DNA of 64,000 bases from Saccharothrix syringae (GTDB taxonomy: Bacteria; Actinomycetota; Actinomycetes; Mycobacteriales; Pseudonocardiaceae), in NCBI RefSeq assembly GCF_009498035.1, contig NZ_CP034550.1:7626001-7690000 (forward strand). The letters run 5' to 3'. Positions 1-48,755 of this stretch are shown here, piece after piece. The notes below the pieces were generated by a model that worked only from the letters and a program-made list of their open reading frames with translations, did no database searches and was not told the origin of the DNA. How positions within the stretch are numbered: the first letter of the stretch is position 1; every line of letters begins with the position of its first letter. The translations under genes were made by a program, and so were the position numbers.

Positions 1-16059
<16,059 letters not shown>

Positions 16060-16073
16060 GGTGTGGTGTCTCC

Positions 16074-30092
<14,019 letters not shown>

Positions 30093-30185: not shown

Positions 30186-31514
30186 TCAGGCGACTTCTCG
30201 CGCGCGCTGCCGGCGGCCGGCGACCCGGCCGCCGATCTGCACCCGGTCGACCAGGCCGCTGCGCGGGTCGCGGAGGAAGCGCCCGGCGTGACCGGCCTCG
30301 CCACCGGCCAGGTCCGTGACGGAGAACACGAGGCCGTCGTAGACGGTGAGCCGGGCCGCGGGCTCGCCGTCGACGACCAGTTGGACGTCGTCGTCCCGGA
30401 GGACCACGGAGTAGGCGGTGTCACCGTTGACGTAGGTGCCCGCGCAGTCGCGCGGCGCCCGGACGCGCCGCTCCGCGCCGGTCAGCGCGGTGTGCTCGCC
30501 GATCTCCAGGCCCGCGGCGCGCAGCTCGGCGACGAGCTGCCGCCACATCGCGGCGCCGGTGTTGGCGTTCGCGGTCAGCGCGACCACCGTGCCCGAGGTC
30601 GGGTCGAAGCGGAGGTGGCAGGAGGTGCCGTCGGCGGTGCCGTCGTGGCCGAACCAGTCGCCGTGCCCGCCGCGGAACGCGGCCAGGCCCAGTCCCCAGC
30701 CGTCGGCCAGGCCGAAGGGCTCGGCGGCCGGGACGAGGCGCCGCATCTCGGCCAGGTCGTCCGCGTCGACCAGGCCGTGGTCGGTGCCGCCGTGCTCGGG
30801 GCGCAGGTGCATGCGGGCCAGCTCGACCAGGTCGGCGGCGCTCACCGCGAGCGCGCCCGCCGGCGCCTCCACCGGCTCCAGCGCCTGCTCGACCGGGCGC
30901 ACGCGGCGCAGGGAGCGGTTGACGGCGTGGCCGGTGGCGATCGGCGCGGGCACCGGGTCGGCGCCCACCACGGACGCGGCGGTGACGCCCATCGGCTTGA
31001 GCAGGACGGTCTGCACGGCCTCCCACCACGTCATGCCGGTGACCACCTCGACCAGGTGGCCGGCGAGGGCGTAGCCGACGTTGGAGTAGGAGAAGCCGGC
31101 GCCCGGCCGCTGCGGGGTGTCCAGCAGGGAGGCGGCCAGCGGGAAGCGGCCCTCGGCCGGGACGACCTCGGCGGCCAGGCCCCCGGTGTGGCTGAGCAGG
31201 TGGCGCGTGGTCAGCTCCTCGGCGAGGTCCGGTCGCGCCCGCCGCAGGTCGGGCAGGTACTCGGCGACCGGCTCGTCCAGCTCGACGTCGCCGTCCGAGA
31301 CCAGGAGCAGGAGCAGGGTGGCGGTGAAGGTCTTGGTGATGGAGCCGACGGGTACCTTGGCGTCCCGGCTCAACGGGCGGCCGGTACCGTGCCGTTCCTC
31401 GCCGAACTCGAACTCCCAGGTCTCGCCGCCGTGCCGCACCGCCAGCTGCGCGCCCGGCACGCCGTTGTCGAGCGCCGCTCTCTCAAAAGTCCCGCGTAAA
31501 TAGTCCACGACCAT
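30186..31514 (-). CDS. Stand-alone PBP-type thioesterase / peptide cyclase candidate (SurE-like)
   Basis: 442 residues of the class C beta-lactamase / PBP fold. The three motifs are present: SxxK at Ser58-Ile-Thr-Lys61, Tyr143-Ser-Asn145, and His290-Asp-Gly292 in place of KTG. The last ~90 residues (from about 352) look like a beta-rich lipocalin-type domain, the architecture of SurE-type enzymes that release and macrocyclise nonribosomal peptides. There is no signal peptide, unlike a secreted DD-peptidase. It is the first gene of the NRPS operon, 93 bp before the first synthetase, which has no thioesterase of its own. I chose the ATG at 31514 because GAGGGA precedes it; an in-frame start at 31562 would add 16 residues. 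Codon 6 is TTA (31499-31497). The fold is clear; the cyclase role is inferred from context, and a cytosolic esterase or D-peptidase is the alternative. Confidence 0.8.
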   Translation of the reverse strand: MVVDYLRGTFERAALDNGVPGAQLAVRHGGETWEFEFGEERHGTGRPLSRDAKVPVGSITKTFTATLLLLLVSDGDVELDEPVAEYLPDLRRARPDLAEELTTRHLLSHTGGLAAEVVPAEGRFPLAASLLDTPQRPGAGFSYSNVGYALAGHLVEVVTGMTWWEAVQTVLLKPMGVTAASVVGADPVPAPIATGHAVNRSLRRVRPVEQALEPVEAPAGALAVSAADLVELARMHLRPEHGGTDHGLVDADDLAEMRRLVPAAEPFGLADGWGLGLAAFRGGHGDWFGHDGTADGTSCHLRFDPTSGTVVALTANANTGAAMWRQLVAELRAAGLEIGEHTALTGAERRVRAPRDCAGTYVNGDTAYSVVLRDDDVQLVVDGEPAARLTVYDGLVFSVTDLAGGEAGHAGRFLRDPRSGLVDRVQIGGRVAGRRQRAREVA

Positions 31515-36686: not shown

Positions 36687-39458
36687 TCAGGCCCCGCCCG
36701 CCCCATCGCCCCCGTCCAGCTCCCCGAGCTGCCGCAGCACCCGCGCGGCCTCCTCCTCCCGCGCCTGCGCCCGGTACAGCTCCAACGCCTCCTCCCACAG
36801 CTCCCGGGCCTCCTCCAGCCGCCCGAGCGCCGCGCACGGGTGCCCCAGCCCGTCGAGGCTGTCGGCCACCGCGTAGCTGTGCCCCAGCTCCCGGAACAGC
36901 GCGAGCGCCTGCCGGTAGTGCCCGACCGCCTCGTCGTGCCGCCCGGTGTGGTGGTCGATGTACCCGAGGCTGTCCAGGGTCATCGCCTCGCCCTCGGGCT
37001 CCCGGTGCTCGCGGTACCGGGCGAGCGCGGCCAGGCAGTGCTCGCGGGCCCGGTCGTGCTCGCCCAGCCGCGCCGCGTACCAGCCGACCAGGTTGAGGCA
37101 CAGCGCCTCGCCCAGCGGCCGGTCCAGCCCGCGGTGCAGGCGCAGGGCGTGCGTGGCGTGCTCCAGCGCCTTCCGGTCGTCCCCGCGCAGCGCCCACAGC
37201 CGGGTGAACTCCTGGTGCGCGCGGGCCTGGTCGTTGCGGTCCCCCGTCTCCTCGGCCAGCTCCAGCGCCCGCCTCAGGTGCCGCTCCGCCTCGGCGTGCC
37301 GCCCCAGGTCGGCGTGGGCGCGGCCGGCGGCCTGGTGGGCGAGGTGGTGCACCGCGGGGTCGGCCACGCGCTCCGCGGCGACCAGGCCGACCTGCCACGC
37401 GGCCAGCCGCGCGTGCAGGTGCCCCCGCCGGTGGTGGAACGTGGTCAGGCACCAGGCCAGCGCCCACGCGGCGTGGTGCCCGTCCAGGGTCGCGGCGGTC
37501 TGCTGGGCGGCGAGCAGGTTGGGGTGTTCGGCGTCGAACCACGCCAGCGCGCCGGCGTAGTCGGGCGCCGGCCGGAGCAGGGTGCCGGGTGCCGGCGGGT
37601 CGAGCGCGATGGGCGAGCGCTCCTGGTGCAGGCACCGGTCGGCGGCGAACGCGGTGTGCAGGTAGTGGTCGACCACCCGCCGCAGGGCCGCCTCCCGTTC
37701 CCGCTCGGGCAGTTCGGCGGCGGTGTCGGCGGCGTGGCGGCGGATGAGGTCGTGCATGCGGTAGCGGCCGCGGGCGTCCCGGGTGATCAGCGACGCCTGC
37801 TCCAGGCCGCGCAGCACCGACCCGGTGTCTTTCAGGGACGAGCCGGTGAGGCTGGCGGCGGCGGCCAGGCCGATGTCGGGGCCGGGTGCGATGCCGAGCA
37901 GGGCGAACGCGCGGGCCTGCCCGGGGGTCAGCGCGCGGTGGGACCAGGACAGCACCGCGGGCAGGCTGGCGGCCGGGTCGCCGTCGTCCAGGGCGTCCAG
38001 GCCCAGCTCGCGCAGTTCGGCGGCGAGCGCGGACAGCGGCAGGTCGGGGTGCATGTGGGCGTGGCCGGCGACGATGCTCAGCGCCAGGGGGAAACCCGCG
38101 CACGACCCGATGACCTCGGCCACGGCCGCCGGTTCGGCGGCCACCCGGGCCGCGCCGAGGCGGTCGGTGAGCAGGGCGCGGGCCTCGGCGTCGGTGAGCA
38201 CGTCCAGGGGCACGTGGCGGGCCGCGGAGTGGGCGATCAGGCCGGGCAGGCGGTTGCGACTGGTCACCAGCACGGTGCACGACGGGCTGCCCGGCAGCAG
38301 CGGGGTGACCTGGTCGGTGTCGGCGGCGTTGTCCAGCACCACGAGCACCCGCCGGTTCGCGACCAGGCTGCGGAACAGGGCCGTCTGGGCGTGCGGGTCG
38401 ACGGGGACGCGGCCGGGTTCGACGTCCAGGGCGTCGAGGAACCCGCGCACGGCCACCGCCGGGTCCATCGGCTCGCCCTCGGGGCTGAAGCCGCGCAGGT
38501 CGACGAAGAGCTGGCCGTCGGGGAACCGGTGGAGGTTGCGGTGGGCCCAGTGCAGCGCGAGCCAGGTCTTGCCGATGCCACCGGCGCCGGCGATGGCCGA
38601 GATCACCACCGCGGCCCCCGACGGCGAGGCGGTGTCCAGGCGGTCCAGCTCCCCGTCGCGGCCGACGAACGGCGCGGGCGCGGCGGGCAACTGGCGCGGC
38701 ACCGCGGTCGCGGGCGTCGTCCGGTCCAGGGCCGGGTCGGCGGCCAGCACCTGCCGGTGCAGCTGCTGCAACGCCGTGCCCGGGTCGGTGCCCAGCTCGT
38801 CGGCCAACCGCTCGCGGACCCGCCGGTAGTGCGCCAACGCCTCGGCGGTCCGGCCCGCCCGGTGCAGGGCCAGCAGGTACTGGCCGGCCACCCGCTCGTC
38901 CAGCGGGCGCTCCCGGACCCGCACCGCCAGCCCGGCCACCAGCCCCTCACCGGCACCCAGCCGCAGCCGCACGTCGACCAGCTCGTCCTCGGCGGCCACC
39001 CGCTCCCCGCGCAACCGGTCCCGCTCCGCGTCCGCCCAGCCGCACTCCAGGCCGGTCAGCGCCTCACCGCGCCACAGCCCGACCGCCTCGGCCAGCAACG
39101 CCTCGGCCCGCTCGTCGTCGGCACCACGCGCCCGCGCGCACAACTCCCGGAACCGGTGCAGGTCCACCACCGAGGGTTCGACCACCAGCGCGTAGCCGCC
39201 CGACCGCCGGACGACGCCCACCTCCCCGGAGCCGGCCAGCACGTGGCGCAGGCGCGAGACGTAGGAGGACAGCGCCCCCCGCACCCGCAACGGCACCTCC
39301 GGTCCCCAGACCCGCTCGACCAGCCGGTCGACCGGCACCACCCGGCCGACCTCCACCGCCAGCGCCGCCAGCACGCACCGCTGCCGGGGCGGCCCGGGGT
39401 CCACCGGTCGGCCGCCCACGTGCGCGGTCACCTCACCCAGCAGGCAGATCTCCACCAC
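36687..39458 (-). CDS. SARP-family regulator with NB-ARC and TPR domains (AfsR-like), copy 1
   Basis: 923 residues. Order: winged-helix OmpR-type DNA-binding domain (1-~95, starting MVEICLLGEV), bacterial transcriptional activator domain (~100-245), NB-ARC ATPase with P-loop GAGGIGKT (291-298) and Walker B RVLVVLDN, a winged-helix linker containing YRMHDLIRRHA, then C-terminal tetratricopeptide repeats (for example AEAERHLRRALELAEETGD). Such proteins activate antibiotic or metabolic genes after nucleotide and signal-dependent oligomerisation. The GTG-GTG start at 39458/39455 has GGGAGG a few bases upstream; an in-frame extension to 39677 is Arg/Pro-rich and unlikely. It diverges from the 262-residue unknown gene. 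Target genes cannot be read from the sequence. Confidence 0.92.
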   Translation of the reverse strand: MVEICLLGEVTAHVGGRPVDPGPPRQRCVLAALAVEVGRVVPVDRLVERVWGPEVPLRVRGALSSYVSRLRHVLAGSGEVGVVRRSGGYALVVEPSVVDLHRFRELCARARGADDERAEALLAEAVGLWRGEALTGLECGWADAERDRLRGERVAAEDELVDVRLRLGAGEGLVAGLAVRVRERPLDERVAGQYLLALHRAGRTAEALAHYRRVRERLADELGTDPGTALQQLHRQVLAADPALDRTTPATAVPRQLPAAPAPFVGRDGELDRLDTASPSGAAVVISAIAGAGGIGKTWLALHWAHRNLHRFPDGQLFVDLRGFSPEGEPMDPAVAVRGFLDALDVEPGRVPVDPHAQTALFRSLVANRRVLVVLDNAADTDQVTPLLPGSPSCTVLVTSRNRLPGLIAHSAARHVPLDVLTDAEARALLTDRLGAARVAAEPAAVAEVIGSCAGFPLALSIVAGHAHMHPDLPLSALAAELRELGLDALDDGDPAASLPAVLSWSHRALTPGQARAFALLGIAPGPDIGLAAAASLTGSSLKDTGSVLRGLEQASLITRDARGRYRMHDLIRRHAADTAAELPEREREAALRRVVDHYLHTAFAADRCLHQERSPIALDPPAPGTLLRPAPDYAGALAWFDAEHPNLLAAQQTAATLDGHHAAWALAWCLTTFHHRRGHLHARLAAWQVGLVAAERVADPAVHHLAHQAAGRAHADLGRHAEAERHLRRALELAEETGDRNDQARAHQEFTRLWALRGDDRKALEHATHALRLHRGLDRPLGEALCLNLVGWYAARLGEHDRAREHCLAALARYREHREPEGEAMTLDSLGYIDHHTGRHDEAVGHYRQALALFRELGHSYAVADSLDGLGHPCAALGRLEEARELWEEALELYRAQAREEEAARVLRQLGELDGGDGAGGA

Positions 39459-47390: not shown

Positions 47391-47528
47391 CCAGGCAGGC
47401 CAAGCCCAGGCAGACCAAGCCCGAACAAGCCAGGCCCGAGCAAGCCAAGCGCAGGCAAACCGAGCCCCAGCAAGCCAGGCCCCAGCAAGCCAAGCCCAGG
47501 CGAACCAGGTCCCAGCAGATCAGTCCCA
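47391..47528. repeat. Imperfect 15-bp tandem repeat at the 3' end of the P450 gene
   Basis: About nine copies of a 15-bp unit approximating CAAGCCAGGCCCCAG (variants CAAGCCAAGCGCAGG, CAAACCGAGCCCCAG). The array starts in the last codons of the P450 gene and extends ~130 bp beyond its stop. The period is a multiple of three, so long Leu/Cys/Gly-rich shadow frames appear on the minus strand; these are not genes. Confidence 0.75.
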
Positions 47529-48755
47529 GGCGACCGGCAAACGCGCCGGCCCCCGCGTGGCCAGCCCGTCCTTCCACTCGATGCCGCCGATCCCACCGCT
47601 CCCACCGATCCCGCCGTTCTCGTCCTCCCCCTCCGCCAACCGCAACCCGGGCAACCGCCGCAACAACACGTCCAACGCCACCTGCAACTCCATCCGCGCC
47701 AGCGGAGCACCCAGGCAGTGGTGCGGCCCGTGCCCGAACCCGACGTGGGACGCGCCCTGCCGCCGCAGGTCCAGCCGGTCCGGGTCGGGGTACACCGAAC
47801 CGTCCCGGTTGGCCGAGTTCAGCACCGGCAGCACCGGTTCACCCGCCCGCACCAGCACACCGCCCAGCTCGACGTCCTCCAGCGCGTACCGCGCGATGCC
47901 CGCGCCGAGCCCGAGCGGCACGAAGCGCATCAGCTCCTCCACCGCCCGCGGCACCAGGTCGGGGTCCGCGCGCAGCAGCTCCCACTGCTCGGGGTGGGTC
48001 AGCAGCACGTACGCGAAGTTGGGGATCTGCGACGCGGTCGTCTCGTGCCCGGCGACCAGCAGCCCCTCGGCCAGCGACAGCAACTCGTCCTCGGACAACC
48101 GGTCCTCCTCGTCGCGCGCGACGACGAGGGCGCCGATCAGGTCGTCCGTCGGCGCCTCGCGGCGGGCGGCGACCAGGCCGGCCATGTACTCCCGCAGCCG
48201 CCCGACGTGCTCCACCACCTCCGCCGGCGTGAACTTCGTGGTGGACAGGAACGCGTCCGACCACACGCGGAAGTCGACGCGGTCCTCGTAGGGCACGCCC
48301 AGCAGCTCGCAGATGACTGTGATCGGCAGCGGCAGGGCGAAGTCCTCGACGAGGTCGGCGGGCGAGCCCTTGGCCAGCATCGCGTCGACCAGACCGTCGG
48401 CGATCCGCCGGGTCCACGGGCGCAGCTGCTCGACCCGGCGCGCGGTGAACGCCTTGGTGACCAGCCGGCGCAGCCTGCTGTGCTCGGGCGGGTCCAGGCT
48501 CATGATGTTGCCGGGCGGCGCCTGGTGCAGCCGCGTGCGCGGCTCGTCGCGGCCGGTCGCGGCCGCCCGGCTGAACCTCGGGTCGCCCAGGACGACCTTC
48601 ACGTCCTCGTACCGGGTGGCCAGCCAGCCGGGTTCGCCGTAGGGCAGCCGGACGCGGACCAGCGGCTGCCGCTCGCGCAGCTCGGCGAACAGCGGCTCGG
48701 GGTCCAGCCGCTCCGGCGTGCTGAACGGGTAGGGCCTGGGCTCGGTGGTGGTCAT
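47520..48755 (-). CDS. Cytochrome P450 monooxygenase
   Basis: 411 residues, a soluble actinomycete class I P450. Visible motifs: I-helix AGHETT (235-240), EELMR as the ExxR element (273-277), and the haem loop FGHGPHHCLGAP with Cys347 as axial ligand. Style and length recall the CYP105/CYP107 groups that hydroxylate secondary metabolites. An unusual Gly/Ile insertion (GGIGGSGGIGG) lies near the C-terminus before ARLPVAWD. The ATG at 48755 has GAGGAG six bases upstream; a TTG two codons earlier is less likely. No ferredoxin gene is adjacent. A TetR-like palindrome lies 35 bp upstream. It could tailor one of the window's natural products, but it sits apart from both clusters. Confidence 0.93.
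   Translation of the reverse strand: MTTTEPRPYPFSTPERLDPEPLFAELRERQPLVRVRLPYGEPGWLATRYEDVKVVLGDPRFSRAAATGRDEPRTRLHQAPPGNIMSLDPPEHSRLRRLVTKAFTARRVEQLRPWTRRIADGLVDAMLAKGSPADLVEDFALPLPITVICELLGVPYEDRVDFRVWSDAFLSTTKFTPAEVVEHVGRLREYMAGLVAARREAPTDDLIGALVVARDEEDRLSEDELLSLAEGLLVAGHETTASQIPNFAYVLLTHPEQWELLRADPDLVPRAVEELMRFVPLGLGAGIARYALEDVELGGVLVRAGEPVLPVLNSANRDGSVYPDPDRLDLRRQGASHVGFGHGPHHCLGAPLARMELQVALDVLLRRLPGLRLAEGEDENGGIGGSGGIGGIEWKDGLATRGPARLPVAWD

What the first reader, a model, noticed from the sequence alone, without database searches (positions are those of the whole stretch)
30186..31514. SurE-like stand-alone cyclase candidate heads a starter-C-less NRPS operon
The sequence shows an unsecreted class C beta-lactamase fold with SxxK, YSN and HDG motifs plus a beta-rich C-terminal domain, directly upstream of an NRPS that begins with an A domain. 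Established: PBP-type thioesterases such as SurE cyclise surugamide-type peptides head to tail and prefer a D residue at the C-terminus. Inference: this operon makes a head-to-tail macrocycle of nine or more residues not matched by any peptide I can recall.
Basis: partly seen in the sequence, partly recalled or inferred. Interest (0 to 1): 0.75.

Follow-up and report, generated by a model that had tools for sequence, protein, structure and literature searches.

The report
Stand-alone cyclase for cyclic nonapeptide
A soil actinomycete carries a four-gene set that most likely builds a nine-residue peptide, closes it into a ring with a separate penicillin-binding-protein-like enzyme, and exports it; the enzyme belongs to a known family, but a product of this kind was not found described.

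Summary
Window 30186-31514 (minus) encodes a 442-aa PBP-type thioesterase; its nearest solved relatives by sequence, fold and tree are SurE and Ulm16. It heads a cassette: cyclase, NRPS A (4 modules, starts with A), NRPS B (5 modules), MFS exporter. Extending leftwards shows NRPS B ending in an epimerisation domain with no thioesterase. Nine modules, chirality L-D-D-L-D-L-D-L-D: a head-to-tail cyclic nonapeptide is expected, roughly cyclo(Val-D-Val-D-Thr-Val-D-Val-basic-D-?-basic-D-Asn). Residue calls are only partly sourced and no chemistry was shown. The nine-module plan recurs in 11 of 11 fully covered clusters of Saccharothrix, Umezawaea and Lentzea. A published survey already found SurE-linked NRPSs with 4-10 modules, so this is a new member of a known kind with a product I found nowhere described. 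In passing: a second SurE-type cluster, in 22 of 25 same-genus genomes, lacks the adenylation core in module 2 in 22 of 22.

The parts
30186..31514 (-). stand-alone PBP-type thioesterase (SurE/Ulm16 family), 442 aa; S58xxK61, Y143-S-N145, H290-D-G292; G220 aligns with SurE Gly235
16074..30092 (-). NRPS A, 4672 aa, modules 1-4: A-T | C-A-T-E | C-A-T-E | C-A-T; initiates with A, no starter C
1..16077 (-). NRPS B, modules 5-9: C-A-T-E | C-A-T | C-A-T-E | C-A-T | C-A-T-E; continues about 3.7 kb beyond the left window edge (to L026:254), ends in E, no thioesterase
23733..25145 (-). piece holding the E domain of module 2 (TIGR01720 109.6 bits)
19233..20645 (-). piece holding the E domain of module 3 (TIGR01720 129.3 bits)
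11458..12870 (-). piece holding the E domain of module 5 (TIGR01720 123.8 bits)
3808..5220 (-). piece holding the E domain of module 7 (TIGR01720 113.5 bits); the terminal E of module 9 lies outside the window, L026:257-1630 minus, 88.3 bits

Best explanation
The gene is a SurE-family penicillin-binding-protein-type thioesterase. NRPS A and B assemble a nonapeptidyl thioester with an L residue at the N-terminus and a D residue on the last carrier protein; the terminal E domain sets the D configuration. The stand-alone cyclase acts in trans: Ser58, activated by Lys61 with Tyr143, Asn145 and His290, takes over the peptidyl chain, and the free N-terminal amine attacks the acyl-enzyme to give a head-to-tail nine-residue macrolactam, which the MFS protein encoded next in the row exports. 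Shown here: family membership, fold, motif residues, gene order, nine-module architecture, E placement, absence of a thioesterase, conservation across three genera. Inferred: the cyclisation reaction, ring size by co-linearity, residue identities, co-transcription, export.
Against: No chemistry was shown. Identity to SurE is only 37% and to Ulm16 44% over aligned columns, and SurE and Ulm16 have long branches, flagged by the program, in both trees. The next structural match, IS11, is a thermophilic esterase aligned over 418 residues, so the fold alone does not prove a cyclase. Ring size rests on co-linearity. Gly220 (SurE Gly235) does not discriminate: Ulm16 and 6 of 8 S12 paralogues have Gly there too.
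Confidence: 0.88

Rival explanations
1. The enzyme is a SurE-family member that mainly hydrolyses the peptidyl thioester and releases a linear nonapeptide, with the ring not formed or formed only in part.
For: The fold is shared with hydrolases (class C beta-lactamases, D-peptidases, IS11 esterase). The desotamide review reports that one study of a surugamide F substrate saw only a trace of ring and mainly the linear peptide (PMC7459860, passage).
Against: It groups with the two solved cyclases and not with the hydrolases tested. An N-terminal L and C-terminal D residue is the ring-closing pattern the review gives for this family (PMC11735501).
Confidence: 0.06
2. The enzyme is a self-protection or tailoring D-peptidase, amidase, esterase or beta-lactamase that happens to lie beside an NRPS.
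For: Pfam family is Beta-lactamase. Solved D-stereospecific peptidases are among the matches.
Against: No export signal by hydropathy. The best NCBIfam class C beta-lactamase model scores 64.9 bits against a cut-off of 825. The trees exclude three solved peptidases/esterases and the eight S12 paralogues used. 28 of 28 relatives lie beside an NRPS. Without it the line would have no release domain.
Confidence: 0.03
3. The cassette makes a ring of another size because a module is skipped, used twice, or because the cyclase joins two chains.
For: The review says SurE cyclo-dimerises a tetrapeptide (PMC11735501, passage). The sister cluster in this genome has a module without an A core.
Against: All nine modules here carry A and T motifs, and all but the first a C motif, and the plan is conserved in 11 of 11 fully covered clusters.
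Confidence: 0.03

Closest known systems
SurE (surugamide cyclase, PDB 6KSU/6KSV)
   Same: PBP-type fold with C-terminal beta domain, same catalytic residues, stand-alone, acts on TE-less NRPSs ending in E; Gly at the Gly235 position
   Different: 37% identity over aligned columns; native surugamide substrates have 8 and 10 residues, though an engineered SurE variant has cyclised a synthetic nonapeptide, desprenylagaramide C (PMC11735501); here nine modules are encoded
Ulm16 (ulleungmycin cyclase, PDB 8FEK)
   Same: same family, fold and motifs; 44% identity over aligned columns
   Different: studied on a hexapeptide and on a tetrapeptide substrate (PMC11735501, passage); here nine modules
BifB SurE domain (biffamycin)
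   Same: SurE-family release of a cyclic peptide, with an MFS exporter encoded in the cluster (PMC13285481, passages)
   Different: embedded in the NRPS and acting on a tetrapeptide; here stand-alone with nine modules
IS11 thermophilic esterase (PDB 7SPN)
   Same: aligned over 418 of 442 residues of the model
   Different: 26% identity in that alignment; falls with the non-NRPS S12 proteins in the tree

Membership tests
PBP-type thioesterase (SurE family) | N-terminal catalytic domain with Ser, His, Asn, Lys (tetrad as given in PMC11735501) | tested here: met
   S58, K61, N145, H290; conserved in 153-155 of 156 family rows depending on the residue (one of the 156 is a mis-sliced row)
[quoted passage not shown]
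   AlphaFold2 model, eight strands in 359-434; full-length match to SurE and Ulm16
PBP-type thioesterase (SurE family) | stand-alone gene beside an NRPS without its own thioesterase | tested here: met
PBP-type thioesterase (SurE family) | first NRPS module loads an L residue, last one a D residue (or Gly) | tested here: met
   module 1 is A-T without E; module 9 ends in E with TIGR01720 88.3 bits, cut-off 74.2; configuration itself inferred from the domains
PBP-type thioesterase (SurE family) | tree position with characterised members | tested here: met
   long branches are a caution; PenA, WolJ, FlkO not included because no sequence was at hand
PBP-type thioesterase (SurE family) | head-to-tail macrolactamisation in vitro | not testable with these tools
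   needs enzyme and substrate
Class C beta-lactamase | score over the curated NCBIfam cut-off | tested here: not met
   bla_class_C 60.1 bits against 415
Secreted S12 DD-/D-peptidase | export signal | tested here: not met
   no hydrophobic N-terminal stretch by Kyte-Doolittle in P0001 or in 16 close relatives; no dedicated signal-peptide program was run
Secreted S12 DD-/D-peptidase | groups with solved peptidases in a tree | tested here: not met
   (two D-peptidases and the IS11 esterase; R61 was not in the tree)
Type I NRPS thioesterase release | alpha/beta-hydrolase TE domain at the end of the last NRPS gene | tested here: not met
   Pfam scan of both parts of NRPS B shows only Condensation, AMP-binding, AMP-binding_C and PP-binding at E <= 0.01; the frame ends 306 aa after the last E motif

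The most novel reading that the evidence does not exclude
The cassette defines an undescribed class of cationic cyclic D,L-nonapeptides, made without tailoring genes of its own, whose backbone chirality (L-D-D-L-D-L-D-L-D) is fixed across three genera while, in one lineage, residues were exchanged by swapping A domains at D positions 3, 5, 7 and 9. Its cyclase would be the first described PBP-type thioesterase with a native nine-residue ring. The sister octapeptide line in the same genus would be a genus-wide example of a module that lost its adenylation core and is loaded in trans.
Probability: 0.5. Interest if true: 0.6.

Novelty: new member of a known kind. Interest (0 to 1): 0.42.

Why it matters
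PBP-type thioesterases are studied as biocatalysts, and substrate size and preferred ring-closing residues differ between them (PMC11735501). In the passages I saw, native products with a stated size have 4, 5, 6, 8 and 10 residues (PMC11735501; PMC13285481). A family of natural nine-residue cyclases, with one lineage whose last A code changes from Asn-like to Val-like, would give a natural series for studying the C-terminal pocket. The predicted product is a compact, cationic, tailoring-free cyclic peptide from a genus that a genome-mining paper ranks among its top 20 for cationic nonribosomal peptide clusters (PMC6095874, passage).

Tried and rejected
Tried without use: solved A domains as a guide to residues 6 and 7 only returned general A domains. 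Literature searches for the codes of A6-A9 found nothing, so those rest on recall. Looking for residues near the active site that change with the last residue gave eight scattered differences between G018 and five other enzymes, too few sequences to read. NCBIfam on whole NRPS proteins was uninformative because A-domain models fill the list; short pieces worked. The pdb_via list holds only chains that Foldseek ranks high, so absence of other folds means nothing.

Considered and rejected: beta-lactamase or secreted peptidase; canonical thioesterase further left; chance neighbour.

Rows dropped or not examined: G043_L054 was left out of both trees because my slice of that contig-end locus was out of frame (six stops); own_L018, G002b_L058 and G020c_L059 were left out of the second tree as long branches; 25 of 119 database homologues (P0003-P0121) were used in the trees, and 52 of them in the alignment for folding. 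Eight of the 18 weaker S12 matches of this genome were examined. G115 is cut by its contig end and counts as not fully covered. In G309 and G305 NRPS B lies in more than one open frame and was left as it is; A7 of G309 was not read. The flanks compared are those fetched, only 2.7 kb beyond NRPS B in G061.

Full report

In a 69-row tree the family rows with SurE and Ulm16 form one side of a branch against eight S12 paralogues of the same genome (98/96). A second 69-row tree, without three long rows and with three solved S12 proteins added (7spn esterase, 4y7p and 3wwx D-peptidases), gives the same at 99/97. SurE and Ulm16 join each other and sit outside the group that holds this protein; both have long branches, so their exact place is unsure. 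The clade of this protein holds proteins from records named Saccharothrix, Umezawaea and Lentzea, and one each named Actinosynnema and Nocardia.

The assembly line. The window is G000:C1:7626001-7690000 of a 10.93-Mb single contig. NRPS A (16074-30092) reads A-T, C-A-T-E, C-A-T-E, C-A-T. NRPS B begins at 16077 or shortly after, ends about 3.7 kb left of the window, and reads C-A-T-E, C-A-T, C-A-T-E, C-A-T, C-A-T-E. TIGR01720, an NCBIfam NRPS domain model that here marks E, was found in 5 of 5 E pieces and 0 of 2 C pieces. C domains that follow an E, C domains that follow a T, and E domains form three clean classes in six lines: the nearest neighbour within the line was of the same class for 78 of 78 domains. 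The chirality read from the domains is L-D-D-L-D-L-D-L-D. No thioesterase family was found in either part of NRPS B. The next gene left, with a 4-base overlap, is an MFS transporter. The review (PMC11735501: section 7 part 1 and passages) states that PBP-type thioesterases join an N-terminal L to a C-terminal D residue, that SurE needs a C-terminal D residue, prefers neutral, aliphatic or aromatic ones, and tolerates most L residues at the N-terminus.

Residues. Codes: A1 DAYFWGVTY, A2 and A4 DAYWWGGTF, A3 DFWNVGMVH, A5 DAYFWGVTF, A6 and A8 DTLDMGFVD, A7 DAWSAGLVD, A9 DLTKVGEVG. A table passage in PMC9113097 lists DAYWWGGTFK and DAYFWGVTFK as Val and DFWNVGMVHK as Thr. A9 as Asn and A6/A8 as ornithine- or lysine-like rest on recalled codes, found in no call. 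The third letter of A6-A8 is uncertain (a gap-free reading by eye gives E). A7 is related to A6/A8 (61-62% identity) but is not assigned.

Conservation. 12 of 297 genomes sampled from the family, this one included, carry an orthologue at E <= 1e-140. All 12 clusters were read (the Umezawaea and two Lentzea loci are three of them, with the same coordinates). In 11, with full coverage, there are nine T domains, E in the same places, and a terminal E about 305 aa from the end; the twelfth (G115) is cut by its contig end. In two of the 11 (G309, G305) NRPS B is in more than one open frame. Of the 11, ten share the code series apart from variants of A1, A3 and A5 that stay Val-like or Thr-like (A7 read in nine of the ten). 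G018 differs: position 3 is Val-like instead of Thr, 5 is Thr instead of Val, 7 is Asn-like, 9 is Val-like, with the A domains most like other positions of the query line (A3 best to A2, A5 to A3, A7 to A9, A9 to A2). All four are D positions; D position 2 is unchanged. Its A1, A4, A6 and A8 are still most like the same positions of the query line (A6 ties with A8 after rounding), though the codes of A1, A4 and A8 differ by three, three and one letters. In the six clusters compared for neighbours, cyclase and MFS genes flank the NRPS pair in 6 of 6. A universal-stress-like gene upstream is shared only by the three same-genus clusters. No other gene was shared by all six within the flanks fetched; single weak hits of 31-39% identity to oxidoreductase- and regulator-like genes occur in three clusters. 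Of 28 further family hits (E <= 1e-60) in 59 relatives, 26 are directly followed by an A-domain frame and two directly follow an NRPS gene; 0 of 8 examined weaker S12 matches of this genome have an NRPS motif within 1.5 kb.

Organism. Genus Saccharothrix: the same-genus genome G009 has a contig of 9360653 bases, the chromosome size given for S. espanaensis DSM 44229 in PMC3469384 (passages), and G019 matches the contig length listed for a Saccharothrix violaceirubra protein. That the window is from S. syringae is only my recollection of its genome size, not verified.

What is known. The PBP-type thioesterase family, its trans action and its stereochemistry are established (PMC11735501). An engineered SurE has already closed a synthetic nonapeptide ring (desprenylagaramide C, same review), so nine residues is no new reach for the fold. 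The desotamide review (PMC7459860, section 15) reports 166 organisms with a SurE-type line among 1421 actinobacterial genomes and 4-10 modules, so nine-module lines may already be in that survey. I found no described nonapeptide product of this family in searches of the open library (listings, plus the passages cited). Most subscription papers are not in that library, so this is weak evidence of absence.

Verdict. It is a new member of a known kind: a well-supported SurE-type cyclase with a nine-module line and a product that I found nowhere described, probably cationic. The reaction itself is inferred.

Side finding. The same genome has a second SurE-type cluster (G000:C1:8165925-8193618, plus). 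Its line has eight T domains but seven A motifs, E in modules 2, 4, 6 and 8, so alternating L and D, and ends in E; the same holds for 6 of 6 same-genus lines read in full. Module 2 has C, T and E but no adenylation core; Pfam sees Condensation, PP-binding and a weak AMP-binding_C remnant (19.4 bits, cut-off 24.5). At E <= 1e-60, 22 of 25 same-genus genomes, this one included, have such a cyclase, and in 22 of 22 the first NRPS gene lacks the A motif in module 2 (six, sixteen, where only the first gene was read). A cluster from another genus (G026) has an A motif there. A precedent for loading in trans is CmnI of capreomycin biosynthesis (PMC12400406, abstract and passages).

Noticed in passing
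L023-L025 (G000:C1:8165925-8193618, plus); orthologous cyclases in 21 other same-genus genomes: A second SurE-type cyclase heads a line whose second module keeps C, T and E but has lost its adenylation core: 22 of 22 same-genus clusters by their first NRPS gene. The six read in full have eight T domains, seven A motifs and strictly alternating L/D configuration. How that carrier protein is loaded, or whether it is skipped, is open.
   Followed up: partly
L033 and L063-L065 (G018:C9), nonapeptide line: Same nine-module, same-chirality line but different A codes at D positions 3, 5, 7 and 9, suggesting exchange of A domains within a fixed backbone pattern.
   Followed up: partly
L086 (G020:C55) and L055 (G025:C2): SurE-type cyclase gene placed directly after, not before, an NRPS gene.
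   Followed up: no
L030 and L031 (Solihabitans fulvus, Allokutzneria sp.): Cyclase-linked lines of other genera with an A-less module 2 as well, and in L031 also an A-less module 3.
   Followed up: no
L098-L099 (G309) and L104-L105 (G305): NRPS B lies in two and three open frames respectively; sequencing error or decay not told apart.
   Followed up: no
L021:9014-13903 plus, left of the cassette: RHS-repeat protein of 1629 aa with a C-terminal Tox-HDC match (28.9 bits, cut-off 21), followed by a 360-aa frame without Pfam match.
   Followed up: no
window 36687-39458 minus and 47520-48755 minus: BTAD-type regulator and a cytochrome P450 further right; beside the five other cassettes compared the regulator has only one weak hit (36%, G018) and the P450 none.
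   Followed up: no
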